Positions 7,732 through 26,516 of a DNA stretch of 64,000 bases are shown here, piece after piece (position 1 is the first letter of the stretch; each line of letters starts with the position of its first letter). The DNA is from an uncultured Gelidibacter sp. (lineage in GTDB: Bacteria; Bacteroidota; Bacteroidia; Flavobacteriales; Flavobacteriaceae), in contig NZ_CANMTE010000001.1 of NCBI RefSeq assembly GCF_947500795.1, positions 186,001 through 250,000 on the forward strand. The letters run 5' to 3'. The notes under the pieces are model-generated. The model was not told the origin of the DNA. It ran no database searches and saw nothing but the letters and a program-made list of their open reading frames with translations. Position numbers and translations under genes: made by a program.

Positions 7732-7775
7732 ATGACTTATATCATATTTTTTATAGCCGATTTAAAATAGTTTTG
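7732..7775 (+). promoter_or_regulatory. hemN promoter with Crp/Fnr-type operator
   Basis: The inverted repeat ATGA-CTTATA-TCAT (7732-7745) is centred exactly 29.5 bp before the first T of TAGTTTTG (7768-7775), a perfect TAnnTTTG -7 box. No -33 element is visible, which fits an activator-dependent (class II) promoter. The predicted transcript starts near 7780, about 19 nt before the ATG. Confidence 0.7.
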
Positions 7776-7798
7776 AATCAAATTTAAGAACATAGACA

Positions 7799-9163
7799 AT
7801 GACGCCCTCTTTAATTGATAAATATAATGTTGCTGGACCAAGATATACGAGTTATCCTACAGTTCCATATTGGGATACGAGTACATTCACGATGAAAACA
7901 TGGAAAGATTCATTAATCAACGCATTTAATGAAAGTAATGAAACCGAAGGCATCAGTTTGTATCTGCATTTACCTTTTTGCGAAAGTTTATGCACCTTTT
8001 GCGGATGTCATAAACGGATTACCAAGCAGCACAGTGTAGAAACGCCGTATATCAGTGCGTTAATAAAAGAGTGGGATTTATATTGTGATATATTACCTAC
8101 AAAACCCAAAATTAAAGAGTTGCATTTGGGCGGTGGCACCCCGACATTCTTTTCGCCTGAAAATTTGAACTTACTCATTAGGAGTTTGTTAAATCGCGCC
8201 ACATTGGCTGATGATTATGAGTTTAGCTTTGAGGGACATCCAAATAATACTACTGAAGAACATCTACAAACGTTTTATGACTTAGGGTTTAGACGCGTTA
8301 GTTATGGTGTTCAAGATTATAATGAAACCGTCCAAAAAGCCATCCACAGAATACAACCTTTTGAAAATGTAAAGCGCGTTACAGAACAAGCTAGAGCTAT
8401 CGGATACACTTCCGTTAGTCATGATATTATATTTGGATTGCCATTTCAAACAAAGGCGCATGTGAGCGAAACCATAGCTAAAACTAAATCTTTGAAGCCT
8501 GATAGAATTGCCTTTTACAGCTATGCCCATGTGCCTTGGATTAAAGGTAATGGCCAACGTGGTTTTGATGAAAGCAATTTGCCATCCGGAACAGCCAAAC
8601 GTCAGCAATATGAATTGGGTAAAACCTTATTAGCAGAAGCTGGCTATCACGAAATTGGCATGGATCACTTTGCATTGCCATCAGATTCTTTGTACCAATC
8701 CATGACCAACAAAACCTTACATCGGAATTTTATGGGGTATACAGCTTCAAAAACAAAAGCGATGATTGGTTTGGGCGTATCTTCAATTAGCGATAGTTGG
8801 TATGGGTTTGCACAAAATGTAAAAGGTATTGAAGAGTACTACAGTTTAATAAAAGAAGGCATCCTTCCTGTTGTGAAAGGTCATATTTTAAATACAGAAG
8901 ATTTAATCATTAGAAAGCATATTCTCAATTTGATGTGTCAATTTGACACCTCTTGGAGTGATGATGAACTGTATTTTGATGAATTACCAGAAGTACTATA
9001 CGGTTTGGAAGAGATGGAACAAGACGGATTATTGATCCGAAATGAGAATCAGTTGAGGGTGACCGAAAAAGGGAAACCTTTTGTGAGAAATATTTGTATG
9101 GCTTTTGATTTACTATTAAAACGGAAACAGCCGCAAACGCGAATTTTCTCCATGACCGTTTAG
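7799..9163 (+). CDS. hemN: oxygen-independent coproporphyrinogen III oxidase
   Basis: Radical-SAM enzyme that makes protoporphyrinogen IX from coproporphyrinogen III without O2, in the cytoplasm. The Fe-S/SAM motif is CESLCTFCGC (Cys 61, 65, 68 with the extra Cys 70, the CxxxCxxC-x-C pattern of true HemN). It is preceded by the typical HemN opening KYNVAGPRYTSYPTVPYW and followed by LHLGGGTPTFF. The 454-residue length and the C-terminal HemN domain match authentic HemN rather than the shorter HemW. The upstream Crp/Fnr-type site is shared with nirK and the cco genes, so expression under low oxygen is likely; haem supply for the cbb3 oxidase is the natural purpose. Confidence 0.95.
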   Translation: MTPSLIDKYNVAGPRYTSYPTVPYWDTSTFTMKTWKDSLINAFNESNETEGISLYLHLPFCESLCTFCGCHKRITKQHSVETPYISALIKEWDLYCDILPTKPKIKELHLGGGTPTFFSPENLNLLIRSLLNRATLADDYEFSFEGHPNNTTEEHLQTFYDLGFRRVSYGVQDYNETVQKAIHRIQPFENVKRVTEQARAIGYTSVSHDIIFGLPFQTKAHVSETIAKTKSLKPDRIAFYSYAHVPWIKGNGQRGFDESNLPSGTAKRQQYELGKTLLAEAGYHEIGMDHFALPSDSLYQSMTNKTLHRNFMGYTASKTKAMIGLGVSSISDSWYGFAQNVKGIEEYYSLIKEGILPVVKGHILNTEDLIIRKHILNLMCQFDTSWSDDELYFDELPEVLYGLEEMEQDGLLIRNENQLRVTEKGKPFVRNICMAFDLLLKRKQPQTRIFSMTV

Positions 9164-9262
9164 GTGAAATGTGCTGAATTTTAGCGAATTGATAAATACT
9201 TTCTTCGCAGCTTTATTTTTATATCACTACCTTTCTAAGTAAAGGCATAAATAATTAAAACC

Positions 9263-10093
9263 ATGGAAAAAATAATTGTACCAATAGACTTTTCAAAATA
9301 TTCAGAGCATGCCTTGGAAGCTGCTGCTATTTTAGCAAAAAAAAATAATGCGGAAATTTTAGCCTTACATATGCTAGAAATGTCTGACGGACTTTTTTCA
9401 AGTTCTGATGCAGGTCAAAAACCAAAAGTGTTATTTTTTCTGAAACTGGCCGAGCAAAAATTTGAAGAATTCTTAAACAAGGATTATTTAAAAGGCATAA
9501 AGATCACCCCAATTGTAAAACAATTTAAAGTGTTTAGTGAGGTGAGTGAGGTAGGAGAACAACATAATGCTGACCTTATCGTCATGGGATCTCACGGCGT
9601 AAGTGGCTTTACAGAAGTTTTTGTGGGCTCAAATACTGAAAAAGTAGTGCGCCATTCTAAAATTCCGGTATTGGTCATTAAACAAAAGCCGAACAATTTA
9701 AATTTTGAAACGGTGATTTTCGCCTCAAATTTCTCAGAGGAAGCGGTTGGCCCTTATATTAAAGCTCTAAAAATGTTACCTGAGACTTCCAAAATGCAGT
9801 TGTTGTACGTTAATGTTCCTGGTGAAAATTTTAAAAGCACATCAGAAATGGAGCAGCAGGTTGCAAGTTTCTTAAAAAAAGCAGATGGGAATTTAGACCA
9901 ACTGAATACTGTAAATTATGTCTCTGACTACTCCATTGAAAAAGGAATTGTAAATTTCTCCAACCTTGTTGGCGCTGATTTGATCATGATGCCAACGCAT
10001 GGCAGAAAGGGCCTAGCCCACTTTTTTGAAGGTAGTATTTCTGAAGATTTAGTAAACCACGCCAACTTACCTGTAATGACTTTTAAGATTTGA
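9263..10093 (+). CDS. tandem-domain universal stress protein
   Basis: Cytoplasmic UspA-superfamily protein of 276 residues with two USP domains. Domain 1 (about 1-145) starts MEKIIVPIDFSKYSEHALEAA and carries the ATP-binding-type motif GSHGVSGFTEVFVGSNTEKVV. Domain 2 (about 150-276) ends with MPTHGRKGLAHFFEGSISEDL. It sits between hemN and nirK on the same strand. Upstream, TACCTTTC (9228-9235) resembles a -7 box, and a degenerate half-conserved ATAA-N6-TCTT lies at the same 29.5-bp distance as the intact operators of its neighbours. Co-regulation by low oxygen is possible but unproven. The biochemical function is not known. Confidence 0.88.
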   Translation: MEKIIVPIDFSKYSEHALEAAAILAKKNNAEILALHMLEMSDGLFSSSDAGQKPKVLFFLKLAEQKFEEFLNKDYLKGIKITPIVKQFKVFSEVSEVGEQHNADLIVMGSHGVSGFTEVFVGSNTEKVVRHSKIPVLVIKQKPNNLNFETVIFASNFSEEAVGPYIKALKMLPETSKMQLLYVNVPGENFKSTSEMEQQVASFLKKADGNLDQLNTVNYVSDYSIEKGIVNFSNLVGADLIMMPTHGRKGLAHFFEGSISEDLVNHANLPVMTFKI

Positions 10094-10123
10094 AGACAGG
10101 TATAATTACGACTATAAACTATG

Positions 10124-10151
10124 AAAGCTGGACGAGAGTTCAGCTTCTTTC
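10124..10151 (+). terminator. possible weak terminator after the usp gene
   Basis: AGCTGGAC and GTTCAGCT form a near-perfect hairpin with a 4-nt loop 30 bp after the stop, followed by TCTTTC rather than a clean T run. Confidence 0.35.
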
Positions 10152-10164
10152 GCATCTAACTTTA

Positions 10165-10231
10165 TATAGGACTAATTTATCCTATATATGACAACCGTCA
10201 TATTTTTCCTATATTTAAAATTTTAATTTTG
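10165..10231 (+). promoter_or_regulatory. nirK promoter with two operators
   Basis: Two inverted repeats abut. At 10165-10186 is a 22-bp repeat with core AGGACTAATTTATCCT, matching sites near ric and the Rrf2 gene. At 10186-10203 is an 18-bp repeat with core ATGAC-AACC-GTCAT (the Crp/Fnr-type ATGA-N6-TCAT), centred 29.5 bp before the -7 box TAATTTTG (10224-10231). The predicted start is near 10236, putting the second operator at about -41.5 and the first near -60. Both oxygen and nitrogen-oxide signals probably meet here. Confidence 0.7.
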
Positions 10232-10251
10232 ATCACTAAATAATTTATCAC

Positions 10252-11700
10252 ATGAAATCACAAACTCTATTAAAATCAGTGTCGCTGCTGTCCTTACTTT
10301 TAATGTTCAGTTGCTTTAAAGAAAAGAAAACTGAATATGCTTCGGCCGAGGAGATTCCAGTAAGTCGAGAAATGATGGCTGAATTAACAGCACCACCCCA
10401 TGTACCTACGCCAGTAGGGAAACGTAAAGCGAAAAAACTAATCGTTAAAATGGAAATTCTTGAAGAGGAAGGAGAAATTACAGATGGTGTACGTTATGTA
10501 TATTGGACTTTTGGAGGTTCAGTGCCTGGCAGTTTTATCAGAGCTCGTGTAGGAGATGAAATTGAATTCCATTTACAAAATCACCCAGATAATAAATTAC
10601 CACATAATATTGACTTGCATGCCGTAAACGGACCAGGTGGTGGTGCAGAATCTTCTTTTGTTGCTCCAGGCCACGAAAAAGTGTTTTCCTTTAAAGTGTT
10701 AAATCCTGGTTTATACGTGTACCATTGTGCTACAGCTCCTGTAGGGATGCATATTGCTAACGGAATGTATGGCCTAATTTTAATTGAGCCAGAAGGTGGC
10801 TTAGCTCCTGTAGATAAAGAATATTACGTAATGCAAGGTGACTTTTACACAAAAGGTGCCAACGGCGAACGTGGATTGCAACCATTTGACATGCAGAAAG
10901 CAGTAGATGAAAATGCAGATTATGTTGTATTTAATGGCAAAGTTGGGGCTTTAACTGGAGACGGTGCCTTAACTGCTAAAGTTGGAGAAACGGTACGCTT
11001 ATTCGTCGGTAATGGTGGACCTGGGTTGGTATCGTCCTTTCATGTCATCGGGGAGATTTTCGACAAAGTTTATGTTGAAGGTGGCGATTTGGTGAATACC
11101 AATGTCCAAACGACCTTGATTCCTGCTGGAGGCGCTGCCATTGTTGAATTTAGGGTTGAAGTGCCAGGAACATTTATTCTAGTGGATCACTCTATTTTTA
11201 GAGCCTTTAATAAAGGTGCTTTAGGAATGTTGAAAGTGGAAGGAGAAGAAGATAAGAAAATATTTTCTGGAGAGTTGATGGATAATATCTATATCCCTGA
11301 AGGTCCTGGAATCCAAACGATGCCGACTACAGATGAAATTAAAGAATCTGATATTCCAGCAAAATCGTTTGCTGAGCAAATGGAATTTGGAAAACAAATC
11401 TATGGACAAACTTGTATTGCTTGTCACCAATCAGAAGGACAAGGTATCCCAGGTGCATTTCCTCCATTGGCAAAATCAGATTATCTTAATGCTGATGTAG
11501 ACAGAGCGATTAGTGCTGTGCTTCATGGATTAAGTGGCGAAATTACCGTAAATGGTGAAAAATACAACAGTATCATGACCAAGCAAATGATTTCCCAAGA
11601 GGAAGTTGCTAATGTGATGACCTATGTGTATAACAGTTGGGGCAATAACAAAACAGTTGTAACGCCAGCAATGGTTAAAAAAGTAAGTGCTAAAAAATAA
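10252..11700 (+). CDS. nirK: copper nitrite reductase with C-terminal cytochrome c domain
   Basis: Reduces nitrite to NO outside the inner membrane. A lipoprotein-like signal ends at Cys 21. Two cupredoxin domains follow (about 60-340). Type 1 copper ligands are His 118, Cys 159, His 167 and Met 172 ([15 protein letters not shown]); type 2 ligands are His 123, His 158 and His 313. Asp 121 ([11 protein letters not shown]) and His 264 are the catalytic acid/base residues. A cytochrome c domain (about 375-470) with CIACH at 388-392 is fused to the end and probably delivers electrons. The short type 1 loop (Cys to His 8 residues) is that of the non-proteobacterial NirK class. It heads nirK-nirV-sco-porin. 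No NO or N2O reductase gene of standard type is in the window. Confidence 0.95.
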
Positions 11701-11749
11701 TTAGTTCTCTACGATCAATTCTATAATAAAACTCTTTAAAACTGTAATC

Positions 11750-12529
11750 ATGCGTACCAAAATCTTCAGATTGTCTTTTGTTCTAATGTTTGTGCAACTG
11801 TTTAGTTACGGACAATCTGAAGGTATGGCGCGTATTGAAGGCGCACGTTATATCCCTTTATATGGAAGGGATTCGACGGTAGTTGCTGTTAATGATTTCG
11901 ATTTGGATGTGTACCCTGTAACCAATAAGGAATATCTCGATTTTGTAAAGAATTTTCCTAAATGGCAAAAATCGAAAGCCAAAAAAATATTTGCAGATGG
12001 CTCGTATCTCAGAAATTGGAAAAATGACTTAGAACTAAATGACGGTGCCTTGCCTAATAGTCCCGTAACTTACGTTAGCTGGTTTGCGGCAAAAGCATAT
12101 TGTGCTAGTCAAGGCAAACGTTTGCCAACGATGGATGAATGGGAATACGCCGCAATGGCTGATGAAAAGCTGAAGGATGCCAGAATCAAAAAATCCTACA
12201 ATGAACAAATCTTATCGTGGTACGAAGCTCCGCGTTCTAATGAAAATGTCATCGGACAACATCCAAAAAACTATTGGGGAGTTCACGATTTACACGGACT
12301 GGTTTGGGAATGGACCTCAGATTTTAACTCCGTTTTACTATCTGGAGAATCGCGAAAAGATAATGAGAAAGATAACAATCTCTTCTGTGGAAGCGCCTCG
12401 TTGGGTGCAACAGATTTGATGAATTACGCGGCTTTTATGCGCTATGCTTTTAGAGGAAGCGTTAAGGCAAATTATGCTATTAAAAATCTGGGATTCAGAT
12501 GTGCAAAAGACGTTGAAAACATAAAATAA
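11750..12529 (+). CDS. nirV: NirV-like formylglycine-generating-enzyme (SUMF1) family protein
   Basis: A 259-residue exported protein (signal peptide about 1-21, ending SYGQS) with the SUMF1/FGE-sulfatase fold. Recognisable blocks are DLDVYPVTNKEYLDFVK, YVSWFAAKAYCASQGKRLP, MDEWEYAA, GVHDLHGLVWEWTSD and the closing GFRCAK. In other nitrite reducers a SUMF1-family gene called nirV directly follows nirK, and the same order is seen here. The role is not established; maturation of NirK or its copper centre is a common suggestion. The true FGE active-site Cys pair is not evident, so sulfatase activation is unlikely. It ends 2 bp before the sco ATG. Confidence 0.85.
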   Translation: MRTKIFRLSFVLMFVQLFSYGQSEGMARIEGARYIPLYGRDSTVVAVNDFDLDVYPVTNKEYLDFVKNFPKWQKSKAKKIFADGSYLRNWKNDLELNDGALPNSPVTYVSWFAAKAYCASQGKRLPTMDEWEYAAMADEKLKDARIKKSYNEQILSWYEAPRSNENVIGQHPKNYWGVHDLHGLVWEWTSDFNSVLLSGESRKDNEKDNNLFCGSASLGATDLMNYAAFMRYAFRGSVKANYAIKNLGFRCAKDVENIK

Positions 12530-12531
12530 AC

Positions 12532-13239
12532 ATGAAAAATACGTTACTAATATTATGTAGCATTCTTTTTATCGGATTGACCTCTTGTAAAAACGAATCG
12601 GCTAAAACTTCAGATGCTATTGCTTATTACTGTCCAATGGAATGTGAAGGAGACAAAACCTATGATGAACCTGGCAGTTGTCCAGTTTGTAATATGGATT
12701 TGGTACGCGTTGAAGCGGATACAGAGACTTCCTCCGATGAGATTTCAGAAACTTCAATCTTCAATCTCACCTCCACATGGACCAACCAAAATGGCGAAGA
12801 CCTTCAATTGGAAGATTTAAAAGGCGATGTTTTGGTAATGGTCATGGTGTATACCTCGTGTAAGGCAGCTTGCCCAAGATTGGTGGCGGATATGCGTAAC
12901 ATTGAAGGACGATTACCTAAAGATGCCAAAAACAATTTAAAGATGGTTTTTGTAAGTATTGATCCAAACACGGATACGCCAGAACGTTTAAAGGCGTTTG
13001 CAGAAGAAAATGTAATGGATAAAGAACCGTGGTTATTCTTAAGATCTTCCGTAGATAATACACGAGAGTTTGCGGCTGTATTGGCTGTAAATTATATGAA
13101 AATTTCGCCTATCGATTTTTCGCATTCTAATATCATCAGTGTATTTAATAAACAAGGTGAATTGGTGTATCAGCAAGAAGGACTCGGTGTTAATTCTGAT
13201 GCAACCGTGCAGCATATTAAAGACGCTATGGCAAACTAA
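12532..13239 (+). CDS. Sco/SenC copper chaperone with heavy-metal-binding domain
   Basis: Lipoprotein (signal ending LTSC, residue 19) of 235 residues with two parts. Residues about 28-60 form a heavy-metal-binding domain of the YYCPMECEGDKTYDEPG type with a following CPVCNMDL. Residues about 75-235 are a thioredoxin-like Sco domain with the copper motif CKAAC and the distal His in DFSHSN. Sco proteins carry copper to oxidases and, in denitrifiers, are thought to supply nitrite or N2O reductase. Its place 2 bp after nirV makes copper delivery to NirK the likely job. A role in Cu-A assembly is less likely, because the cbb3 oxidase here has no Cu-A. Confidence 0.88.
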   Translation: MKNTLLILCSILFIGLTSCKNESAKTSDAIAYYCPMECEGDKTYDEPGSCPVCNMDLVRVEADTETSSDEISETSIFNLTSTWTNQNGEDLQLEDLKGDVLVMVMVYTSCKAACPRLVADMRNIEGRLPKDAKNNLKMVFVSIDPNTDTPERLKAFAEENVMDKEPWLFLRSSVDNTREFAAVLAVNYMKISPIDFSHSNIISVFNKQGELVYQQEGLGVNSDATVQHIKDAMAN

Positions 13240-13276
13240 TACGTTTGCTCAACCTTGGTAATCTAATTCCAGAATC

Positions 13277-14530
13277 ATGAAAAAACTAGTCATTTTAGCA
13301 TGCCTCGGCATGTTGAGCCTCACTACCTATGCCCAAGAATTTGGGATCGATTTACAGTTAAGGCCGCGTGTTGAGTATCGTCATGGCTACAAAACCTTGA
13401 TTCCTGATGCTATTGATGCTGCGACATTTGTGTCCCAACGATCTCGGCTTAATCTGAAGTATGGCAGTACAAAACTCAATGCTTACATATCCTTGCAAAA
13501 TGTAAGAGTTTGGGGCGATGTAAGCACTTTATCTGCGACAGATGCTAACGGTACAGCCATTCATGAAGCATGGGCGTCACTTAAATTAGATTCGGTTTTG
13601 AGCTTTAAAATGGGGCGTCAGGAAATAATTTATGACGATTCTAGAATTTTCGGCAATGTCGATTGGGCGCAAACGGGCAGAAGCCACGACGCTTTTATTG
13701 CTACTTACCAGCCCAACACAAAAAATCGATTAGATCTTGGAATCGCTCTGAATGAAGAAGATGAAACGCTTTTTAAAACGGATTATAATGTCAATAATTA
13801 CAAGGCTTTTCAATATGTGTGGTATCATACAAACTTTGATAATTTGAATTTAAGTTTGTTGGCACTAAATACAGGGTTTACATTTGATAACGATGGCAAC
13901 CAGGAAGTCGATTACAACCAAACTTTTGGTGCGTATGTCACTTTCAGGAAAAACGTGTTCAAAGCAGATGCTTCAGCCTATTATCAAACGGGGAAAATTG
14001 CGAATCGTGACTTAAGTGCTTTTAATTTATCTGGGAATTTACACGTTCAAGCAACTTCAAATTTAAATATTGGTATTGGTGCTGAATATGTATCGGGTAC
14101 GGATATGAACAGTACAGATTCCGATATAAAATCGTTCAACCCGCTATTTGGGACCAATCATAAATTTAACGGTTGGATGGATTATTTTTATGTAGGCAAC
14201 CATATCAATTCTGTGGGTTTGGTGGATATCAATCTACCCGTAAAATATCAACAGGATAAATGGACACTTCAATTGATCCCACACCTTTTTTCATCTGCGG
14301 CAACGGTTGTAGATCTTATGGGCAATGAACAGGATGCTTATTTAGGCACCGAAATTGATTTCTCATTGGGCTATAAAATCGCTGATGCTATCGATTTTCA
14401 ATTAGGATATTCACATATGTTCGCTTCCGACACGATGCAATTGCTGAAAGGCGGTAATAACGACAACACGAATAATTGGGCTTGGGCCATGTTTGTTTTC
14501 AAACCAAATTTATTTACGCATTCCAAATAA
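13277..14530 (+). CDS. outer-membrane porin, alginate-export-like family
   Basis: A 417-residue exported beta-barrel (signal peptide about 1-19, ending TYAQE). The segments LQLRPRVEYRHGY, FVSQRSRLNLKYG, LDSVLSFKMGRQEIIYDDSR and RSHDAFIATY match the alginate-export (AlgE-like) family, and the last residues alternate polar and aromatic like a final strand. It closes the nirK cluster (38 bp after sco), so passage of nitrite or another small anion is an inference from context. Substrate is unknown; alginate itself is unlikely given the neighbours. The stop lies only 12 bp from the stop of the convergent hemerythrin gene, with no clear terminator between. Confidence 0.82.
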   Translation: MKKLVILACLGMLSLTTYAQEFGIDLQLRPRVEYRHGYKTLIPDAIDAATFVSQRSRLNLKYGSTKLNAYISLQNVRVWGDVSTLSATDANGTAIHEAWASLKLDSVLSFKMGRQEIIYDDSRIFGNVDWAQTGRSHDAFIATYQPNTKNRLDLGIALNEEDETLFKTDYNVNNYKAFQYVWYHTNFDNLNLSLLALNTGFTFDNDGNQEVDYNQTFGAYVTFRKNVFKADASAYYQTGKIANRDLSAFNLSGNLHVQATSNLNIGIGAEYVSGTDMNSTDSDIKSFNPLFGTNHKFNGWMDYFYVGNHINSVGLVDINLPVKYQQDKWTLQLIPHLFSSAATVVDLMGNEQDAYLGTEIDFSLGYKIADAIDFQLGYSHMFASDTMQLLKGGNNDNTNNWAWAMFVFKPNLFTHSK

Positions 14531-14542
14531 CAGTTCGGTTAG

Positions 14543-15004
14543 CTAGCGCCAAAACTCGTCTTCCACATTATCCACAAAGGCTTCTTCGTAATGAATTTCC
14601 GCTATGAGGGCCAACTGATCTTCAGTTGCTGTTTTTTGAATTTCCGGAAACAAAATGCGTTCTTCAAAACGGATATGCTGTTCTAATTCTTCCTCAATTT
14701 TATGAAGGTTTTTAACGGCATCATCGTCATTGGTAAATAAACGTTTTAAACGTCTATGTTCAGCTAAAGCGCGCTTGACCAATTCGTGGTCTTTGTTTAA
14801 GATGGTGAAGATATGCGTCTCTTCCAATTCGAAGTGGGGAATCAAATGGTTTTCAAAAAACCAATCAGCATACTTTTTAATGCGATCAGTTTCAATATGT
14901 TTACTGAAACCGTTTCTAATTTTCCAAGATAATAATAATCCATGGTGATGCTCTCTGCTTAAAGGTTGCAATGCTTTATGTCGTTTTAATGGTTTTGGTG
15001 TCAT
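14543..15004 (-). CDS. hemerythrin-like (HHE) domain protein
   Basis: A 153-residue cytoplasmic four-helix protein expected to bind a di-iron centre. Candidate ligands lie in EHHHGLLLSWKIR (His), ENHLIPHFELEETHIF (His, Glu, Glu), AEHRRLKRLF (His) and QHIRFEERILFPEIQ (His, Glu, Glu), which is the HHE pattern. Small proteins of this family bind O2 or NO. It is translated from within the last 29 bp of the upstream membrane-protein gene, so the two are one unit. With ric nearby, a role in NO or oxygen sensing or scavenging is reasonable but inferred. Confidence 0.85.
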   Translation of the reverse strand: MTPKPLKRHKALQPLSREHHHGLLLSWKIRNGFSKHIETDRIKKYADWFFENHLIPHFELEETHIFTILNKDHELVKRALAEHRRLKRLFTNDDDAVKNLHKIEEELEQHIRFEERILFPEIQKTATEDQLALIAEIHYEEAFVDNVEDEFWR

Positions 15005-16181: not shown

Positions 16182-16231
16182 TTAAAAGAGATACGGTTGT
16201 TGAAAGTTACGACTATTAGAAAGATAAAAAA

Positions 16232-16348: not shown

Positions 16349-17080
16349 TTATTTTAAGGATGCCTCCAGTTTTATAGCCTCTGGAAACAAGATGTTATTT
16401 TCTAGATGGATATGTAAATGCAAATCCTTTTCAAATTCTTCTAACATCGCAAAGGTTACTTTATAAGTGTTGCATGCATCAGCCGGTGGTGTGTAATTAT
16501 CAGTCAATTCTGCAATTTTTCTGAAACGTTCACCTTCAGCTTCATGCTCATCTTTCATCATGGCAATGGGGCTTTCAACCGTATTAAATTGTGGCGATTC
16601 AACATTGAGGCCTTCCATTTTTGCTTTAACCATACGTTTGATAAAAGGGAAGAGGATCAACTCTTCTTTTTTCATATGTGAAGCCAATTCTTTTGTTGAG
16701 CCAATAAATAATGCGGTTATTTCAAGAAGTTCAGGATGGTTGTGTCCATGGACTTTACAGAGTTTGTCTAAAAACTGACGCACTATTGGCGATTTTTCCT
16801 CAACATAACGGTGGTGTTTTTTCTCAATATAATCTGCCAATAAATCTAAAGGCCATGATTTGTAATCAATTGATTGCTGGTTGTTTGAAGATTGCGCAGC
16901 TTCTAATTTTGATAACAATTCATCTACCTCGATCTTGTTTTTTGTGCAAACTTCTTCAATGGTGCGATCTCCCTTACAGCAAAAATCGATGCCATAGTTA
17001 GAAAATACAGCGGCAGTTCTAAAATCTTCAGCCACAAATTGGCCGATTTGTTTTTGTGAATCTTTATGTAGTGTTTCCAT
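16349..17080 (-). CDS. ric: iron-sulfur cluster repair di-iron protein (Ric/ScdA/YtfE)
   Basis: Cytoplasmic protein that helps restore Fe-S clusters damaged by NO or oxidants. Residues about 1-55 are the ScdA N-terminal domain with the paired Cys in NYGIDFCCKGDRTIEEVC. The remaining ~185 residues are a hemerythrin-like di-iron bundle with ligands in KKHHRYVEEKSP, HMKKEELILFPF, KDEHEAEGERF and HIHLENNILFPEA. The 243-residue length is standard. A GGATAA-AA-TTATCC operator lies about 66-79 bp upstream of the ATG, the same motif as before the adjacent Rrf2 gene, so repression by that regulator with release by NO is likely. This parallels NsrR control of ytfE in E. coli. Confidence 0.94.
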   Translation of the reverse strand: METLHKDSQKQIGQFVAEDFRTAAVFSNYGIDFCCKGDRTIEEVCTKNKIEVDELLSKLEAAQSSNNQQSIDYKSWPLDLLADYIEKKHHRYVEEKSPIVRQFLDKLCKVHGHNHPELLEITALFIGSTKELASHMKKEELILFPFIKRMVKAKMEGLNVESPQFNTVESPIAMMKDEHEAEGERFRKIAELTDNYTPPADACNTYKVTFAMLEEFEKDLHLHIHLENNILFPEAIKLEASLK

Positions 17081-17145
17081 AAATTTAGCCCAATCCTGAA
17101 AATCAAGGATTTTTTCTGGGTGTTTTAAATTAGACTTGTTAATTC

Positions 17146-17159
17146 GGATAAAATTATCC
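17146..17159 (-). promoter_or_regulatory. Rrf2-type operator before ric
   Basis: GGATAA-AA-TTATCC is a perfect inverted repeat with 6-bp arms, lying between the ric start and the Rrf2 gene stop. It matches GGACAAATTTATCC (17661-17674) and GGACTAATTTATCC in the nirK promoter. Confidence 0.65.
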
Positions 17160-17179
17160 TATTTATATTCAAATTTTTT

Positions 17180-17614
17180 TTACAGTTTTAGAAAACTTAC
17201 GCCAGATTTTATGTCCAATGCCAACTGTTCAAGATTGGTGTTTTCCAACATGTTTTTCAACTGCGTTCTAACGGCTTTAAACTGATCATGTACAGGGCAG
17301 GGGTGCTCTTCATCGCAAACATGCAATCCTAATCCACACCCTCTATAAATGTTATCTCCGTCAATGGCATTTACAATTTGCGAGAGCTTGATGGTAGAAA
17401 TCTCGTTTTTCGGAATTTCAAATCCGCCGTAAGCTCCTTTAACCGATTTTATAATGTTATGTCTGACTAAATCTTGTAATATTTTGGCGGTAAACGCTTC
17501 TGGAGAATCAATTTCCTTTGCGATTTCCTTTAAGCTGACACGTTTACCATCATAAGAAATGGTGGCTATATAAATTGATGCTTTAAGACCGTATTGACAA
17601 GCTTTAGAAAACAT
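17180..17614 (-). CDS. Rrf2-family transcription regulator, NsrR/IscR-like
   Basis: A 144-residue DNA-binding protein. The winged helix is at about 1-80 (SLKEIAKEIDSPEAFTAKIL, then KSVKGAYGGFEI). Three cysteines in CGLGLHVCDEEHPC (spacing C-x6-C-x5-C) are placed as in NsrR and IscR, so it should carry an NO- or redox-sensitive Fe-S cluster. NsrR is favoured because the gene sits directly upstream of ric and its putative operator also precedes nirK; the cysteine spacing alone does not decide it. A site with the same motif overlaps the predicted -33 box of its own promoter (17636-17675), which predicts autorepression. It is separated from ric by 99 bp. Confidence 0.88.
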   Translation of the reverse strand: MFSKACQYGLKASIYIATISYDGKRVSLKEIAKEIDSPEAFTAKILQDLVRHNIIKSVKGAYGGFEIPKNEISTIKLSQIVNAIDGDNIYRGCGLGLHVCDEEHPCPVHDQFKAVRTQLKNMLENTNLEQLALDIKSGVSFLKL

Positions 17615-18855: not shown

Positions 18856-18865
18856 AATCTCAATA

Positions 18866-18883: not shown

Positions 18884-18970
18884 CCCTTTTTTAGTTAATA
18901 GTCTATTTCTTTAGTTCATATCAAAACGACTAGAGTATTGATATGCAGTTTCCACTGATGATAGTGCCAC

Positions 18971-20395: not shown

Positions 20396-20446
20396 TTGTG
20401 TTATATTTTTAATTCAATTGAATGCTATCGGTTGTTTACCAATATT

Positions 20447-21337
20447 TTATTCCTCTGCACTATCATCTACCCAAATGTCACCTTCAGGCTCTTTCGGTTT
20501 CGCCGGCGTTGTACCTTGAAATGTCAGAATATAGCTTGCTACCTGAGCCATTTCATTAGGTTTTAAGGTCGATTTCCATGAAATCATTCCTTTGCCGCTA
20601 CGGCCACCTTCACTAATAGTGTTGAAAATATTTTTGATGCCGCCACCTAAAATCCAGTGTTCATCTGCAAGGTTAGGACCAATTCCACCGCCACCATCTG
20701 CCATATGACAAGCCACACAGTTGGATTCATAAATTGTCCGTCCACTTGCCAAATCGGATGGATCAGTCAATACGGTTACGGAATTGATATCTACCAAATC
20801 TTTGGCTGTTTTTTTATACTCTTCTAACTCTGCTTTGGCAATTTCTAAAGTGTTTTGCAGTTCTTCATATTGATTTTCACCATCAAATACATGGTAACGG
20901 ATTAAGTATACGGCAGCAAAAATGATAGACGCATAAAAGCCATATAACCACCATGGTGGAAGATCATTATCTAATTCTTTGATGCCATCATAATCATGAT
21001 CAAGAATAATTTCACCTTCTTTTTCGATAGGCTTCGTACCTAACATTTTTTTGTAGGTCTTCTTGATCCATTCACCAATTTTTGATGGTGATGATTTAGC
21101 AGCTAAAAAACGTGCTTTTGCCGCTGCATCTAAACTTTGATACATCACATTTTCTAATGCTGCTACAATGGCTTCTGTTGCAACTATAATAGCCAGTACC
21201 AACAATAGGAAAAGTCCAATCATCGGGTTTTTTATAAATGCCGGTTGATCTCCGGAGTCCACAAAAAATTCAATTAGACCCCAGATGGTAAAGAATACCA
21301 ATGGCACCCTAACGTAAGATGGAATTAAATGTCTCAT
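20447..21337 (-). CDS. ccoP: cbb3 oxidase subunit III, mono-haem CcoP
   Basis: Inner-membrane cytochrome c subunit that passes electrons to CcoO/CcoN. Three hydrophobic segments (about residues 8-26, 40-61 and 131-149) precede a coiled-coil stretch and a single cytochrome c domain with CVACH at 207-211. Proteobacterial CcoP has one N-terminal helix and two haem c domains; this 296-residue form has only one haem motif and a longer N-terminal membrane region. Its start overlaps the ccoQ stop by 4 bp, so translation is coupled. Confidence 0.92.
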   Translation of the reverse strand: MRHLIPSYVRVPLVFFTIWGLIEFFVDSGDQPAFIKNPMIGLFLLLVLAIIVATEAIVAALENVMYQSLDAAAKARFLAAKSSPSKIGEWIKKTYKKMLGTKPIEKEGEIILDHDYDGIKELDNDLPPWWLYGFYASIIFAAVYLIRYHVFDGENQYEELQNTLEIAKAELEEYKKTAKDLVDINSVTVLTDPSDLASGRTIYESNCVACHMADGGGGIGPNLADEHWILGGGIKNIFNTISEGGRSGKGMISWKSTLKPNEMAQVASYILTFQGTTPAKPKEPEGDIWVDDSAEE

Positions 21338-21519
21338 AGTGTAGTTTCGTTTTGGTTGTCTAAAGGAATATTGCTCATTTGTTTGATGTACTCTTTTTTA
21401 GCGGTAAATACCCACCAGAAAAGCAATACGAAGAATGTGAAAAATATTAGTAAGGAAATCACCGGGTATATTTCAATGCCCGCAATGCTATCCATATGGT
21501 TTTTTACAAATTTTAGCAT
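21334..21519 (-). CDS. ccoQ: cbb3 oxidase small subunit CcoQ
   Basis: A 61-residue protein with one central helix (IYPVISLLIFFTFFVLLFWWVF) followed by a charged tail, the usual CcoQ/FixQ shape. It lies 5 bp after ccoNO and overlaps ccoP by 4 bp. CcoQ is thought to stabilise the oxidase. Sequence similarity is weak in this short family; the identification rests on size, topology and position. Confidence 0.85.
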   Translation of the reverse strand: MLKFVKNHMDSIAGIEIYPVISLLIFFTFFVLLFWWVFTAKKEYIKQMSNIPLDNQNETTL

Positions 21520-21524
21520 GGTTG

Positions 21525-23708
21525 TTAGTTTTGTGTTGTTTCTAAATCTTGTATTTTAATGTCAGTTCCTAAGCGCTGTAAGTAAGCAATGATGGCTACA
21601 ATTTCACGATTACGCATTTCCACGAAGTCATCGCCACTACTGTTCTTATCTGCTTCATAAGATTCTACAAAGTCAGGATCAGCATAAAGGTTCTTTTCAA
21701 TTTGAGTCCCTTGTTCAGCCATGTGTTGTTGGGCGTTTGCAATCTCTTCGTCAGTATAAGGCACGCCCATACGCACCATAGCTCTCATTTTCGTTTCTGT
21801 GTTGGACTTATCCAATTCATTTGTAATCATCCATTTATAAGCAGGCATGATAGAACCTGATGAGGTGCTTTGTGGGTCATACATATGATTGAAGTGCCAG
21901 TTGTCAGAATATTTGCCACCAATTCTATGTAAGTCTGGCCCTGTACGTTTACTTCCCCATAAGAATGGATGGTCATAAACATATTCACCAGCTTTAGAGA
22001 ATTCGCCGTAGCGTTCTACTTCATCCCTAAACGGTCTAATCATTTGAGAGTGACAGCCCACACAGCCTTCACGGATGTAAAGATCTCTACCTTCAAGTTC
22101 TAATGGCGTATAAGGTTTAACACTAGTAATGGTAGGGATGTTTGATTTCACCATAATGGTTGGCACAATTTGAATAATTCCACCAATAAGGATCGCAATA
22201 GTGGCTCCAATTGTTAACTGAATTGGTTTACGCTCCAACCAGCTGTGCCAGTGTTCACCAGCTACACGGCTTTTTGAAACACGCTGTAATGCTGCTGCTT
22301 CAGCAAGCTCGTCAGTTACTTCACTTCCTTTTCTGATGGTTTGAATCACGTTATAGCACATGATTAACATTCCTGTGATAAATAAGGTACCACCAATAGC
22401 GCGCATCCAGTACATTGGCATAATTTCCGTAACAGTTTCTAAGAAGTTACCGTATACCAGCGTGCCATCAGGATTGAATTGTTTCCACATACTCGCTTGG
22501 GTAAACCCAGCAACATATAGAGGCAGCGCATACATAATGATTCCCAAGGTGCCAATCCAGAAATGAAAGTTGGCTAAACCGATAGAATGCAATTTACTTT
22601 TGGTCATACGCGGAATTAACCAGTAGATCATTCCGAAGGTTAAGAATCCGTTCCAAGCTAAGGCGCCAACGTGTACGTGCGCAATAATCCAGTCTGTGTA
22701 ATGCGCAATGGCATTGACGTTTTTCAAGGATAACATTGGTCCTTCAAAGGTTGCCATACCATAACCGGTGAGGGCAACGACCATGAATTTTAAAACAGGG
22801 TCAGTTCTTACTTTATCCCAAGCACCACGAAGTGTCAGAAGTCCGTTGATCATCCCACCCCAAGAAGGCATTAATAACATAACAGAGAATGCCACACCTA
22901 AATTCTGTGCCCATTCTGGTAATGCGGTATATAATAAGTGATGTGGTCCGGCCCAGATATAAATAAAAATCAATGACCAGAAGTGAATAATGGAAAGTCG
23001 GTAAGAATACACCGGTCTGTTGGCCGCTTTTGGTACAAAATAGTACATCAATCCTAAGAATGGTGTGGTTAAGAAAAACGCCACCGCATTATGTCCGTAC
23101 CACCATTGTACTAACGCATCTTGAACCCCTGCGTATACCGAGTAGCTTTTAAATGCACTTACAGGTAAGGCTAAACTATTAAAGATGTGGAGTACGGCAA
23201 CGGTTACGAAGGTTGCAATGTAAAACCAAATGGCCACATACAAATGACGTTGCCGTCTTCTTAAAATGGTTCCGATAAGGTTCCAACCGAATGCCACCCA
23301 TACCACCGCAATGGCAATATCAAAAGGCCATTCTAATTCGGCATATTCTTTAGATGATGAAAAGCCCAATGGAAGCGTTATAGCAGCACCAACGATAATT
23401 AATTGCCATCCCCAAAAGTTGAAGTTACTTAAGGCATCGCTAAACATGCGGGCTTTTAATAAACGTTGCGACGAATAGTAAATCCCGGCAAAAATAGCGT
23501 TCCCTACGAAGGCGAAGATGACTGCATTGGTGTGCAATGGTCTTAATCTACCAAAGCTCAACCATGAAATGCCGTCCGTAAGATTTGGGAAAAGAAATAA
23601 GAAAGCCAGTAATAGGCCCACCAACATTCCTATAACGCCCCAGAACATAGTGGCATAAAGGAATTTTTTGACGATTTTATTATCGTAATAAAATTGTTGC
23701 ATTTCCAT
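21525..23708 (-). CDS. ccoNO: fused cbb3 cytochrome oxidase subunits I and II (CcoN-CcoO)
   Basis: The catalytic core of the high-affinity terminal oxidase, 727 residues. Residues 1 to about 490 are CcoN with about 12 helices and the metal ligands in RPLHTNAVIFAF (low-spin haem), WYGHNAVAFF and GPHHLLYTALPEW (Cu-B), and AHVHVGALAWNGF (haem b3 and b). Residues about 515-727 are CcoO, with one membrane helix and haem c motif CVGCHSQMIRPF. The two are separate genes in Proteobacteria; fusion is usual in Bacteroidota. It reduces O2 to water and pumps protons. The neighbouring ATG three codons in (23702) is an alternative start. Confidence 0.96.
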   Translation of the reverse strand: MEMQQFYYDNKIVKKFLYATMFWGVIGMLVGLLLAFLFLFPNLTDGISWLSFGRLRPLHTNAVIFAFVGNAIFAGIYYSSQRLLKARMFSDALSNFNFWGWQLIIVGAAITLPLGFSSSKEYAELEWPFDIAIAVVWVAFGWNLIGTILRRRQRHLYVAIWFYIATFVTVAVLHIFNSLALPVSAFKSYSVYAGVQDALVQWWYGHNAVAFFLTTPFLGLMYYFVPKAANRPVYSYRLSIIHFWSLIFIYIWAGPHHLLYTALPEWAQNLGVAFSVMLLMPSWGGMINGLLTLRGAWDKVRTDPVLKFMVVALTGYGMATFEGPMLSLKNVNAIAHYTDWIIAHVHVGALAWNGFLTFGMIYWLIPRMTKSKLHSIGLANFHFWIGTLGIIMYALPLYVAGFTQASMWKQFNPDGTLVYGNFLETVTEIMPMYWMRAIGGTLFITGMLIMCYNVIQTIRKGSEVTDELAEAAALQRVSKSRVAGEHWHSWLERKPIQLTIGATIAILIGGIIQIVPTIMVKSNIPTITSVKPYTPLELEGRDLYIREGCVGCHSQMIRPFRDEVERYGEFSKAGEYVYDHPFLWGSKRTGPDLHRIGGKYSDNWHFNHMYDPQSTSSGSIMPAYKWMITNELDKSNTETKMRAMVRMGVPYTDEEIANAQQHMAEQGTQIEKNLYADPDFVESYEADKNSSGDDFVEMRNREIVAIIAYLQRLGTDIKIQDLETTQN

Positions 23709-23718
23709 AGTAAAATAA

Positions 23719-23904
23719 TTAGTCTTGATTAGTTAGTTTTGATGTTTTTGGTTTTTCTTTTATGAGTTCGTCTTCAAAAAGCATACGAACGGAAGGGGTG
23801 TAACTGTCGTCATATTGTCCGCTCCTGACGGCCACTATAAAGGCAATAAAAAAGATGACAGCAACGATGATGCTGATAGTCAATAAAATATAGATAACGC
23901 TCAT
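23719..23904 (-). CDS. ccoS: cbb3 oxidase maturation protein CcoS
   Basis: A 61-residue protein with one N-terminal helix (MSVIYILLTISIIVAVIFFIAF) followed by AVRSGQYDDSYTPSVRMLFED, the signature CcoS tail with the short segment between membrane and acidic motif. CcoS is needed for cofactor insertion into CcoN. It is the first gene of the ccoS-ccoNO-ccoQ-ccoP-ccoG-ccoH unit, 10 bp before ccoNO, and directly follows the Crp/Fnr-type promoter. Confidence 0.93.
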   Translation of the reverse strand: MSVIYILLTISIIVAVIFFIAFIVAVRSGQYDDSYTPSVRMLFEDELIKEKPKTSKLTNQD

Positions 23905-23925
23905 ACCTAATTAGAAGTTATGGGC

Positions 23926-23969
23926 CAAAATTACATTTGACACCAAAGTTATTTTATGATATAAATCAT
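23926..23969 (-). promoter_or_regulatory. promoter of the ccoS-ccoNO operon with Crp/Fnr-type operator
   Basis: ATGA-TATAAA-TCAT (23956-23969) is centred 29.5 bp upstream of the first base of the minus-strand -7 box TAATTTTG (23933-23926). Spacing is identical to hemN, nirK and ccoI. The predicted transcript starts near 23921, about 17 nt before ccoS. Confidence 0.7.
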
Positions 23970-24072
23970 ATTTGGTCATTTTTCTACCGATTTATACCTC
24001 ACATTTTCAAATTAATTTCTCTCTATTTCTTTCAAGACAATACAATGTTTTCATTGTCCCAATGCACTTCAT

Positions 24073-26460
24073 TTATTTCAATTTTCGAGACACCCAATTG
24101 GTAGCTATGGTTGTAAATACCACGACACTTATTGAACTTAAAGGCATCAAGATGGCGGCAATAACGGGGGCTAATTGACCGGTGACCGCAAAATACACCC
24201 CGATCACATTGTAGAATAAGGACAACATAAAGCTCCAATTCACAATTTTTATGGCGGATTTCGATAAACTGAGGAAATCTCCCAGGCGGTTAAAATTTTC
24301 CGCATCTAAAATGGCGTCACAAGCAGGGGAAAACACATTGACATTTTCAGATAGTGCAATCCCTACATTACTTTGTGCCAAAGCACCAGCATCATTCAAT
24401 CCGTCGCCAAGCATCATCACTTTAGCGCCTTCACTTTGATGGTATTTTATATATTCGAGTTTGTCGTCTGGTTTTTGGTTGAAGAGCATCTTGGTTCTTA
24501 CCGGCAACAATTTTTTCAGATTCTCCAATTCACCTTCGTTATCGCCCGATAAAATGGCCAAATCGTAGTGTTTTTTAAGCCTGTTGAACAATTGTGCCAA
24601 TCCTTTTCGGTAACTGTTATAAAACGTGTACTTGCCTTTGTAGGTGTCATTGCTGCTAATATGAACGGCAGTATTGAGTAAGGCCGTTTCGTTGGTTTTC
24701 CCAACAAACTTGGCCGATCCTATTTTAATTCGATCGTCTTGGTGTACGCCTTCAATCCCTTGGCCTAAATGCTCTTCAAATTGATCGAGGGTAATGATGT
24801 CATGTTCTTCCAAAAGTGCATAAAGCGTTCTGCTAAGTGGGTGATTTGAGCCTCTCAAAGTGTTTTTTAGAAGTTTCTCTTCGGAAGCCGATAAAGTAGC
24901 CCCTTCATACGTTGCAGTACTTTGTTTATTGGAAGTTATCGTCCCTGTTTTATCGAAGATAATGGTGTTGATGGCCGCCATTTGCTCAATAACCGTGGCA
25001 TTTTTCAGATAGAATTTATGTTTTCCGAAAATCCGAAGCATATTCCCAAGGGTGAAGGGCGCGGCCAAAGCAATAGCACACGGACAAGCAATAATTAAAA
25101 CCGAAGTGAATACGTTTAGGGCTTTACTGGAATCGGCAAACAACCAAAATGTTGTAGAGATAAATGCAATACTTAAGACCACAATGGTAAAGCGTTTACT
25201 GATGACGTTGGTTAGCGTAGTAAAGCCATCTTCCTTAGATTTGTTAAACACATCATTTCCCCACAATTGGGTCAAATAACTCTGCTCCACACTTTTTAAG
25301 GCTTCCATCTCAATACTTCCCGAGGTTTGCTTGCCACCAGCAAAAAGTTTATCGCCTGATACTTTTCGGACCGCTTCAGATTCGCCAGTTACAAAGCTGT
25401 AATCTATTTTTGCATTACCTTTTATGAGCACCCCATCTACAGGAATGAGTTCCTCATTTCTGATCAACAATCGGTCACCTTCCTTAATATCATAAACTTG
25501 AACGGGTTGTTCTTTGCCATCCTTGGTTATTTTGGTAATGGCGATAGGGAAATAGGACTTATAATCCCGTTCAAACGATAAAAAAGAATAGGTTTTTTGT
25601 TGGAAGAATTTCCCTAACAATAGAAAGAATAAGAGGCCGGTTAAACTATCAAAGAAACCAGAACCGAAATCGAACATGATGTCTATCGTACTTCTTAAAA
25701 AGAGCACAATAATGCCTAACGCAATAGGCACATCAATATTTAGGGCTTTTGCACGTAACCCTTTATAGGCGGATATAAAATAATCTGACGACGCATAAAA
25801 CACTACTGGTAATGAGAATGCAAACATTAACCACCTAAAGAATGGTTTATACTGTTCCAACCAAAATTCATTCACTTCAAAATATTCTGGAAACGATAAA
25901 AACATCACATTCCCAAAAGCGAAACCGGCAATACCGAGTTTGTAGATTAGGGAGCGGTTAACGTGGCTCTTTCCAGTAGAAAAATCTTCCAAACTGATAT
26001 AGGGTTCGTAGCCTATGGAACTCAATAAAATGACGACTTCCTTTAAACTGTAATGTTCTGAGTTGTATTGAAGTCGCACCGTTTTCTTACCGAAGTCGAC
26101 TTGAGGCGATGAAATATTCGGGTTGAGTTTGTTGAGGTTTTCAAGGATCCAAATACAAGAACTGCAATGGATTTGCGGAATATAAAGTGTTACAATTTGC
26201 GATTTGCCATCATCAAACTCTACTAATTTGTCAATAATATTCTGTTGGCTAAGAAAATCATAATTCCCCTGAATATCATTTGGCGTGGTGCCAGGGTTAG
26301 ATTGTAAATCGTAATAACAAGTCAGGTCGTTTTCTGAGAAAATTTCATAGACCGTTTTACAGCCCTGACAACAAAAAGATTTGTCATCGTAGTGCATAGT
26401 GGATGTGTCACATGGATCGCCACAGTGGAAACAACTTAATTGCGCCATATTAATGCTCAT
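24073..26460 (-). CDS. ccoI: copper P1B-type ATPase CcoI (FixI), for cbb3 oxidase maturation
   Basis: Inner-membrane ATPase of 795 residues that exports copper for oxidase assembly. A Cys-rich N-terminal stretch (LSCFHCGDPCD, then FCCQGCKTVYEIF) precedes an HMA domain with the metal site HCSSCIW, about eight helices with the transport motif CPCAIALAAPF, the phosphorylation site DKTGTIT and the hinge GDGLNDAGAL. The Cys-rich extension is typical of the FixI/CopA2 branch rather than detoxifying CopA. It lies upstream of ccoS and has its own Crp/Fnr-type promoter; a second promoter follows for ccoS. No CopZ or CueR is nearby. Confidence 0.93.
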   Translation of the reverse strand: MSINMAQLSCFHCGDPCDTSTMHYDDKSFCCQGCKTVYEIFSENDLTCYYDLQSNPGTTPNDIQGNYDFLSQQNIIDKLVEFDDGKSQIVTLYIPQIHCSSCIWILENLNKLNPNISSPQVDFGKKTVRLQYNSEHYSLKEVVILLSSIGYEPYISLEDFSTGKSHVNRSLIYKLGIAGFAFGNVMFLSFPEYFEVNEFWLEQYKPFFRWLMFAFSLPVVFYASSDYFISAYKGLRAKALNIDVPIALGIIVLFLRSTIDIMFDFGSGFFDSLTGLLFFLLLGKFFQQKTYSFLSFERDYKSYFPIAITKITKDGKEQPVQVYDIKEGDRLLIRNEELIPVDGVLIKGNAKIDYSFVTGESEAVRKVSGDKLFAGGKQTSGSIEMEALKSVEQSYLTQLWGNDVFNKSKEDGFTTLTNVISKRFTIVVLSIAFISTTFWLFADSSKALNVFTSVLIIACPCAIALAAPFTLGNMLRIFGKHKFYLKNATVIEQMAAINTIIFDKTGTITSNKQSTATYEGATLSASEEKLLKNTLRGSNHPLSRTLYALLEEHDIITLDQFEEHLGQGIEGVHQDDRIKIGSAKFVGKTNETALLNTAVHISSNDTYKGKYTFYNSYRKGLAQLFNRLKKHYDLAILSGDNEGELENLKKLLPVRTKMLFNQKPDDKLEYIKYHQSEGAKVMMLGDGLNDAGALAQSNVGIALSENVNVFSPACDAILDAENFNRLGDFLSLSKSAIKIVNWSFMLSLFYNVIGVYFAVTGQLAPVIAAILMPLSSISVVVFTTIATNWVSRKLK

Positions 26461-26472
26461 TTATACCTGGCG

Positions 26473-26516
26473 CAAATGTTCTATTTATATTCTCTTTAAA
26501 AAATGATATATGTCAT
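26473..26516 (-). promoter_or_regulatory. ccoI promoter with Crp/Fnr-type operator
   Basis: ATGA-TATATG-TCAT (26503-26516) is centred 29.5 bp upstream of the first base of AACATTTG (26480-26473, one mismatch to TAnnTTTG). The predicted start is near 26468, leaving a leader of only about 8 nt before the ATG. Confidence 0.65.

What the first reader, a model, noticed from the sequence alone, without database searches (positions are those of the whole stretch)
7732..26516. Four low-oxygen promoters share one operator at an identical distance
Seen: ATGA-N6-TCAT occurs before hemN (7732-7745), nirK (10188-10201), ccoS-ccoNO (23956-23969) and ccoI (26503-26516). In every case the centre is exactly 29.5 bp upstream of the first base of the -7 box (TAGTTTTG, TAATTTTG, TAATTTTG, AACATTTG), and no -33 box is seen. 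Known: TGA-N6-TCA is the core of Crp/Fnr-family sites and class II activators bind near -41.5. Inference: one Crp/Fnr-type regulator encoded elsewhere drives all four; the ATGA/TCAT outer bases would differ from FNR (TTGA/TCAA) and HcpR (GTGA/TCAC).
Basis: partly seen in the sequence, partly recalled or inferred. Interest (0 to 1): 0.72.

Follow-up and report, generated by a model that had tools for sequence, protein, structure and literature searches.

The report
Shared low-oxygen switch, swapped oxygen sensor
Four genes for living with little oxygen share one DNA switch at exactly the same distance from their start signals, and comparison with relatives suggests that this bacterium lost the usual iron-sulfur-type oxygen sensor for that switch and now drives it with a different, probably heme-based, two-protein relay.

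Summary
The window has exactly four ATGA-N6-TCAT palindromes, each 22 bp before a TAnnTTTG-like -7 box, in front of hemN, nirK, ccoS-ccoNO and ccoI. Their number is unremarkable (4 against 2.28 expected); the spacing is not. In the genome 5 of 7 exact hits with gaps 20-30 have gap 22. In 100 family genomes gap 22 takes 81 of the 150 listed hits (mean 4.3 for other gaps). In 149 genomes of the class there are 161 matches against 3 for the reversed pattern.

With -7 boxes at -12 to -5, the centre is -41.5: a class II Crp/Fnr activator site, refined to [A/C]TGAY-N4-RTCAT.

Relatives often encode a four-cysteine, FNR-like regulator beside ccoI. This genome lacks it; its congener keeps it. Genomes without it nearly always have a receiver-Crp fusion (20 of 21, against 21 of 55 with it). 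That protein is encoded after a kinase with a FixL-like PAS domain and before the same operator. Both regulators, and a third Crp here, share an E-x-x-I-R recognition helix.

Best reading: the low-oxygen regulon is intact and in this genome is driven mainly by a FixL-like kinase and a fused response-regulator/Crp activator. The regulon is well supported; which protein binds is inferred.

The parts
7732..7745 (+). operator ATGACTTATATCAT before hemN, centre -41.5
   Evidence: same palindrome in congener G013 (L346)
7768..7775 (+). -7 box TAGTTTTG of hemN, gap 22
7799..9163 (+). hemN, oxygen-independent coproporphyrinogen III oxidase
   Evidence: TIGR00538 over cut-off
10188..10201 (+). operator ATGACAACCGTCAT before nirK
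10224..10231 (+). -7 box TAATTTTG of nirK, gap 22
10252..11700 (+). nirK, copper nitrite reductase with C-terminal cytochrome c domain
23956..23969 (-). operator (read on - strand ATGATTTATATCAT) before ccoS-ccoNO
   Evidence: position conserved in 73 of 76 genomes, 48 exact
23926..23933 (-). -7 box TAATTTTG of ccoS-ccoNO, gap 22
23719..23904 (-). 61-aa first ORF after the operator, ccoS-like (name recalled, no family test)
21525..23708 (-). ccoNO fusion, cbb3 oxidase subunits I+II
   Evidence: COX1 and FixO domains
26503..26516 (-). operator (read on - strand ATGACATATATCAT) before ccoI
26473..26480 (-). -7 box AACATTTG of ccoI, gap 22
24073..26460 (-). ccoI, heavy-metal P-type ATPase
26461..26671 (.). 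place between ccoI and the Peptidase_S9 gene where the congener G013 has the four-cysteine FNR-like gene plus two further genes; absent here

Best explanation
The palindromes are one class II Crp/Fnr-type activator operator, [A/C]TGAY-N4-RTCAT centred at -41.5 from TAnnTTTG promoters, which turns on a low-oxygen regulon (cbb3 oxidase and its copper ATPase, oxygen-independent heme synthesis, nitrite reductase, azurin, universal stress proteins, a CBS protein). In just over half of the family genomes examined a four-cysteine FNR-like protein, mostly encoded beside ccoI, is the likely activator. In this genome that gene is missing, and the operator is most likely served by a two-component relay: a kinase with a FixL-like PAS domain senses falling oxygen through heme and phosphorylates a response regulator whose output part is itself a Crp/Fnr-type DNA-binding protein, so that FixJ- and FixK-like steps lie in one polypeptide. 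Shown by computation: operator, spacing, conservation, missing FNR gene, kinase/regulator architecture, shared recognition helix, co-distribution. Inferred: heme and oxygen binding, phosphotransfer, DNA binding, direction of regulation.
For: Spacing. Promoter conservation. -7 box at -12 to -5, and induction of cbb3 and heme-synthesis genes by oxygen limitation, in F. psychrophilum: PMC9723704, passages. Further own-genome targets at gap 22: azurin (TIGR02695, 114.4 bits, cut-off 105.1) and one Usp gene exact; a second Usp, CBS, YceI and a pyridine-nucleotide oxidoreductase with one mismatch; a third Usp with two. FNR-like gene: four Cys invariant in 48 of 48, three of them aligning with Cys of solved FNR that I recall as cluster ligands; absent here. 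Receiver-Crp protein. In 80 named loci the operator follows its stop codon at gap 22 in 65 exactly, 12 relaxed, 3 not, before a Usp-like gene in most (by sequence start only). Helix E, I and R and phospho-Asp invariant in 81 of 81 rows. Kinase PAS: best PDB matches are FixL, E 1.3e-16; FixL heme-His equivalent in 78 of 79 rows, Arg220 equivalent in 71 of 79. Co-distribution: fusion in 20 of 21 FNR-less against 21 of 55 FNR-bearing ccoNO genomes, Fisher p 4.5e-6 without correction for kinship. In 8 FNR-less genomes that also lack the small Crp and, as far as one search shows, the second FNR type, 7 keep the ccoNO operator.
Against: No expression, binding or spectroscopic data. The fusion-only state is clustered on the tree and the pair test that allows for kinship is not significant (median p 0.22; direction 4.5 pairs for, 0.5 against, of 10). 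The small Crp (C1:382358-382945) has the same E-x-x-I-R helix, a similar palindrome in its own promoter region, and is itself commoner in FNR-less genomes (11 of 22 against 8 of 54, p 0.003), so it could serve some or all sites. FixL Arg206 is not conserved in the kinases. Two of the FNR-less genomes (G036, G075) have another Cys-rich FNR-like protein. Three FNR-less genomes are only 82-88% complete (G022, G048, G089). nirK promoters carry the site in only 10 of 26. The own genome is a draft of 19 contigs, 99.97% complete. A published study assigned a Flavobacteriales Crp/Fnr homologue to MalR-like carbon sensing (PMC8510549, passages); I did not test which protein that is.
Confidence: 0.6

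Rival explanations
1. The small stand-alone Crp (195 aa, C1:382358-382945) is the activator of all four promoters, and the receiver-Crp protein only controls the adjacent universal stress genes.
For: Same recognition-helix residues (RVETVIR), palindrome ATGATTTGAGTCAT just upstream of its gene with a box at gap 22 towards the divergent operon; present in this genome; commoner in FNR-less genomes.
Against: Found in only 23 of 100 family genomes and in 11 of 20 FNR-less fusion-bearing ccoNO genomes; 7 of 8 FNR-less genomes without it keep the ccoNO operator; its own sites have a different inner sequence (ATGATTTG-type).
Confidence: 0.17
2. Both Crp-type proteins act on the same operators, one for oxygen and one for another signal such as nitric oxide, as FnrN and FixK share one box in rhizobia.
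For: Shared E-x-x-I-R helix. FixK and FnrN are reported to share TTGAT-N4-ATCAA (PMC7888657, abstract and passages).
Against: No direct evidence; inner bases of the sites differ.
Confidence: 0.18
3. A four-cysteine FNR is present but missed (assembly gap), so nothing has been replaced here.
For: Draft genome of 19 contigs.
Against: 99.97% complete; the cco region lies inside a 1.17 Mb contig, where relatives have the gene; the own-genome profile search finds only the fusion protein at E <= 1e-30.
Confidence: 0.04
4. The palindromes are chance or some unrelated repeat.
For: Four palindromes in 64 kb is within chance by count.
Against: Exact gap in window, genome, family and class and conservation before orthologues.
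Confidence: 0.01

Closest known systems
FNR/ANR/FixK boxes (TTGAT-N4-ATCAA) of Proteobacteria
   Same: Crp/Fnr-type palindrome with the same TGAY-N4-RTCA core and similar targets; Anr boxes before hemN and azu are named in the abstract of PMC6588701 (search listing), the rest of that comparison is recalled
   Different: outer bases A or C, and T, instead of T and A; helix has Ile where FNR has Ser212 (residue number recalled); sits before TAnnTTTG promoters
FixL-FixJ-FixK of rhizobia, and hFixL-FxkR-FixK with FnrN (PMC7888657)
   Same: FixL-like PAS kinase, response regulator, Crp/Fnr-type activator, cbb3 oxidase target, and an FNR branch converging on the same box
   Different: FixJ- and FixK-like roles lie in one protein (receiver + cNMP-type + Crp HTH); different operator; only one PAS region found in the kinase (membrane segments not tested)
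E. coli-type FNR ([4Fe-4S])
   Same: the relatives' cco-linked protein aligns almost from end to end; CxxC and the later Cys in VCxIP align
   Different: Cys29 equivalent missing, an invariant Cys53 instead; absent from this genome
HcpR / DNR
   Same: Crp/Fnr family regulators of nitrogen-oxide genes
   Different: published sites TGTGA-N6-TCACA, TTGAC-N4-GTCAA, GTAAC-N4-GTTAC and TTGAT-N4-ATCAA (PMC1274295, passages), none being this one

Membership tests
class II Crp/Fnr-dependent promoter | TGA-N6-TCA palindrome | tested here: met
class II Crp/Fnr-dependent promoter | centre at -41.5 | tested here: met
   gap fixed at 22; the -12 to -5 place of the -7 box is taken from F. psychrophilum; start sites not mapped here
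class II Crp/Fnr-dependent promoter | activation on binding | not testable with these tools
   needs expression and binding data
FNR ([4Fe-4S] oxygen sensor) as regulator in this genome | cysteine cluster | tested here: not met
   no four-cysteine FNR found: profile search, cNMP-domain proteins; present in 56 of 100 family genomes at E < 1e-90
FixL | heme-PAS with proximal His and distal Arg | tested here: met
   His in 78 of 79 rows, Arg220 equivalent in 71 of 79, both in this genome; PDB matches; heme itself not tested
FixL | scores as FixL equivalog | tested here: not met
   NF041777 103.5 bits against cut-off 850, best stretch the PAS part
FixJ | receiver plus LuxR/NarL-type HTH (definition recalled) | tested here: not met
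   receiver + cNMP_binding + HTH_Crp_2
FixK | stand-alone Crp/Fnr protein without Cys cluster | tested here: not met
   fused to a receiver; NF050806 64.6 bits against cut-off 300
HcpR/DNR regulon | published binding motif | tested here: not met
   operator consensus against motifs

The most novel reading that the evidence does not exclude
A regulon whose operator stayed fixed while its oxygen sensor was exchanged repeatedly: a four-cysteine iron-sulfur-type FNR was lost many times within the family (the fusion-only state needs 8 to 12 changes on the CcoNO tree, some of which could be gains), nearly always where a heme-PAS kinase with a response regulator fused to a Crp/Fnr DNA-binding domain (FixJ and FixK in one protein) was present to take over.
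Probability: 0.45. Interest if true: 0.78.

Novelty: new variant of a known kind. Interest (0 to 1): 0.62.

Why it matters
It gives this family, and by spacing statistics part of the class (61 of 149 genomes), an explicit and testable low-oxygen box, with a residue-level guess (E-x-x-I-R reads [A/C]TGAY). It also proposes a natural experiment in network evolution: target promoters stay while the sensor chemistry (iron-sulfur or heme-phosphorelay) changes. The receiver-Crp fusion would be a shortened FixL-FixJ-FixK cascade that could be tested in harmless laboratory flavobacteria. My ten library searches returned no paper that, from the titles, starts of abstracts and the passages read of four papers, describes this operator or this fusion as an oxygen regulator; most subscription papers and preprints are not in that library.

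Tried and rejected
Count of the palindrome alone as evidence: rejected, 4 against 2.28 expected. Operator as a site of the genome's other Crp proteins: four of them have different helices (QETLSR, AQALSR, VVISR, AVFNR), one (646-aa frame) was not examined for an HTH. HcpR/DNR: published sites differ. Shift of the first base A to C or T in FNR-less genomes (14 of 20 not A, against 11 of 53 with FNR): looks like co-evolution but is confounded by clade (independent pairs not significant), so not claimed. Pair test of FNR loss against fusion presence: not significant; the estimate 0.382^8 = 4.5e-4 assumes independent losses and is only a guide. Structure prediction was not used. The haemoglobin-like gene beside the small Crp gave no Pfam or NCBIfam hit, so that name is recalled only.

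Classification notes: searches counted G020 as FNR-less; one search shows a divergent four-cysteine FNR there, so the final table moves it; the tree counts were not redone. G048, the only genome left with neither regulator, is 82% complete. The lists of 56 (FNR, E < 1e-90), 42 (fusion, near full length) and 23 (small Crp, E < 1e-37) genomes were read off the listings and typed into; the listings were cut off after weaker matches. Cys counts cover the 48 linked copies between 200 and 260 aa. nirK promoters: 26 of 26 matches; hemN: the best 30 of 67 matches. Upstream stretches: 75 relatives plus this genome; three were too short for the ccoI count. The names Usp, ccoS, NorB and haemoglobin, where no family call is cited, are recalled.
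Full report
Observation. By number this is ordinary (2.28 expected, 18 of 100 shuffles reach four). What is not ordinary is the arrangement: each is followed, after exactly 22 bases, by a -7-type box and a low-oxygen gene. A relaxed scan of both strands at that gap finds only these four in 64 kb. In the whole genome (3.46 Mb) there are 140 palindromes per strand against 64 for the reversed control; 7 have TAnnTTTG at gaps 20 to 30, and 5 of the 7 have gap 22. With one mismatch at the same gap there are 16 more places; 9 of them lie outside ORFs of over 120 aa and have an ATG 9 to 62 bases after the site, among them ccoI, a CBS protein, another Usp, a YceI-like protein, a pyridine-nucleotide oxidoreductase and the operon divergent from a Crp gene. 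Five of the 16 lie inside longer ORFs and are probably chance. With up to two mismatches the genome has 118 matches against 53 for the reversed control, so many weak hits are noise.

Conservation. In 100 family genomes the search listed 150 hits before the listing was cut; 81 have gap 22, while the other 16 gaps have 4.3 on average and 8 at most. In 149 genomes of the class, the refined pattern at gap 22 occurs 161 times in 61 genomes, the reversed control 3 times. Upstream of ccoNO, 73 of 76 genomes have the palindrome core at gap 22 before TTTG/A, 48 of them exactly ATGA-N6-TCAT; position 5 is C or T in 73 of 73 and position 10 A or G in 72 of 73, giving [A/C]TGAY-N4-RTCAT. The ccoI region has it in 33 (exact) plus 24 (relaxed) of 73; elsewhere in the same loci the exact form occurs 6 times in about 325 kb, and the relaxed background was not measured. 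hemN has it in 21 of 30 and nirK in 10 of 26, with no palindrome in the coding stretches used as background. In F. psychrophilum the TAnnTTTG box lies at -12 to -5, and oxygen limitation strongly induces cbb3 oxidase and also heme-synthesis genes (PMC9723704, passages read); the operator centre is then at -41.5.

Which regulator. The genome has 7 cNMP-domain matches. Two have recognition helices ending E-T-x-I-R: a small Crp (C1:382358-382945, RVETVIR) and a response regulator with receiver, cNMP-type and Crp HTH domains (C4:71335-72378, ATETLIR). Four others have different helices; the seventh was not examined for one. PMC1274295 (passages) ties Arg180 to the G of GTGA sites and Glu181 to the A of TGA; both proteins have the Glu and not the Arg, which fits. 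In relatives a third such protein is encoded upstream of ccoNO in the opposite direction, next to ccoI where I looked: 48 copies of 200-260 aa were recovered, all with four invariant cysteines (C4, C7, C53, C106) and an E-x-x-I-R helix. Against solved FNR, C4, C7 and C106 align with cysteines that I recall as cluster ligands, while the FNR Cys29 place is not Cys; whether Cys53 replaces it is inference. This genome has no such gene, although its congener G013, with 97% identical CcoNO, has it; between the Peptidase_S9 gene and ccoI three G013 genes including FNR have no counterpart here. Loss of FNR here rather than gain there is inferred from its spread in the family (56 of 100).

The receiver-Crp protein. 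Its gene follows a histidine kinase gene. The kinase PAS domain has FixL as best solved match (E 1.3e-16). In 79 aligned kinases (78 from the 80 named loci plus this one) the residue matching the FixL heme histidine is His in 78 and that matching Arg220 is Arg in 71, while that matching Arg206 varies. The identity of these positions as FixL His200, Arg206 and Arg220 is recalled; two FixL chains differ at the latter two places, which fits the known mutants as I recall them. Phospho-acceptor Asp and the helix E, I and R are invariant in 81 of 81.

Who replaces whom. Among 76 ccoNO-bearing genomes, 55 have a four-cysteine FNR (counting G020) and 21 do not. The fusion is present in 20 of the 21 and in 21 of the 55 (Fisher p 4.5e-6); the exception, G048, is 82% complete. 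On a CcoNO tree FNR presence changes 14 times and the fusion-only state 12 times, at least 8 on well supported branches (G020 still counted as FNR-less). The fusion-only state is clustered, and a pair test that allows for kinship is not significant (median p 0.22), so the association is strong by count but not phylogenetically proven. The small Crp occurs in 23 of 100 genomes, in 11 of the 20 FNR-less fusion-bearing genomes, and is itself commoner without FNR (11 of 22 against 8 of 54). Eight FNR-less genomes lack it and, as far as one search shows, the second Cys-rich FNR type; seven of these keep the ccoNO operator. That makes the fusion the best single candidate, in this genome too, but here the small Crp cannot be excluded: its own promoter region carries a similar palindrome (13 of 23 orthologues have an exact one 14 to 24 bases before the gene), with a different inner sequence.

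Comparison with the known. In Rhizobium leguminosarum hFixL-FxkR-FixK and FnrN converge on one TTGAT-N4-ATCAA box and on fixNOQP (PMC7888657, abstract and passages). The logic proposed here is the same; the operator, the promoter type and the fusion of receiver with Crp domain differ. By membership the kinase is not a FixL equivalog (103.5 bits against 850), the regulator is neither FixJ nor FixK by domain make-up, and the operator is none of the published HcpR/DNR motifs read. A study of an anammox reactor assigned a Flavobacteriales Crp/Fnr homologue to MalR-like carbon sensing (PMC8510549, passages); I did not test which protein that is. Nothing here is shown by experiment; binding, heme and oxygen sensing remain inference.

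Noticed in passing
G017:C2:256994-257067; also G058:C108:7493-7573 with unequal gaps: One palindrome can serve two back-to-back promoters; in G017 both boxes are at gap 22.
   Followed up: no
L448, L449, L453 (G036, G075, G084): A second Cys-rich FNR-like type (CxxCx4C plus later Cys, helix TTEEQVIR) in some relatives, also with E-x-x-I-R.
   Followed up: partly
L031:6359-7717 (C1:382358-383716): Small Crp divergent from a 96-aa hydrophobic protein and a haemoglobin-like protein without family hit (name recalled), with an ATGATTTG-type palindrome between them.
   Followed up: partly
window 16349-17614 (-): ScdA_N-hemerythrin gene next to an Rrf2-type regulator, between nirK and the cco cluster, without the operator.
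   Followed up: no
ccoNO promoters of FNR-less genomes: First operator base is A in 6 of 20, against 42 of 53 in FNR-bearing genomes; clade-confounded.
   Followed up: partly
L032:7748-8317 (-): A short Crp-type gene (GTG start) next to a NorB-like gene (name recalled), helix AQALSR; perhaps a separate NO-linked regulator.
   Followed up: no
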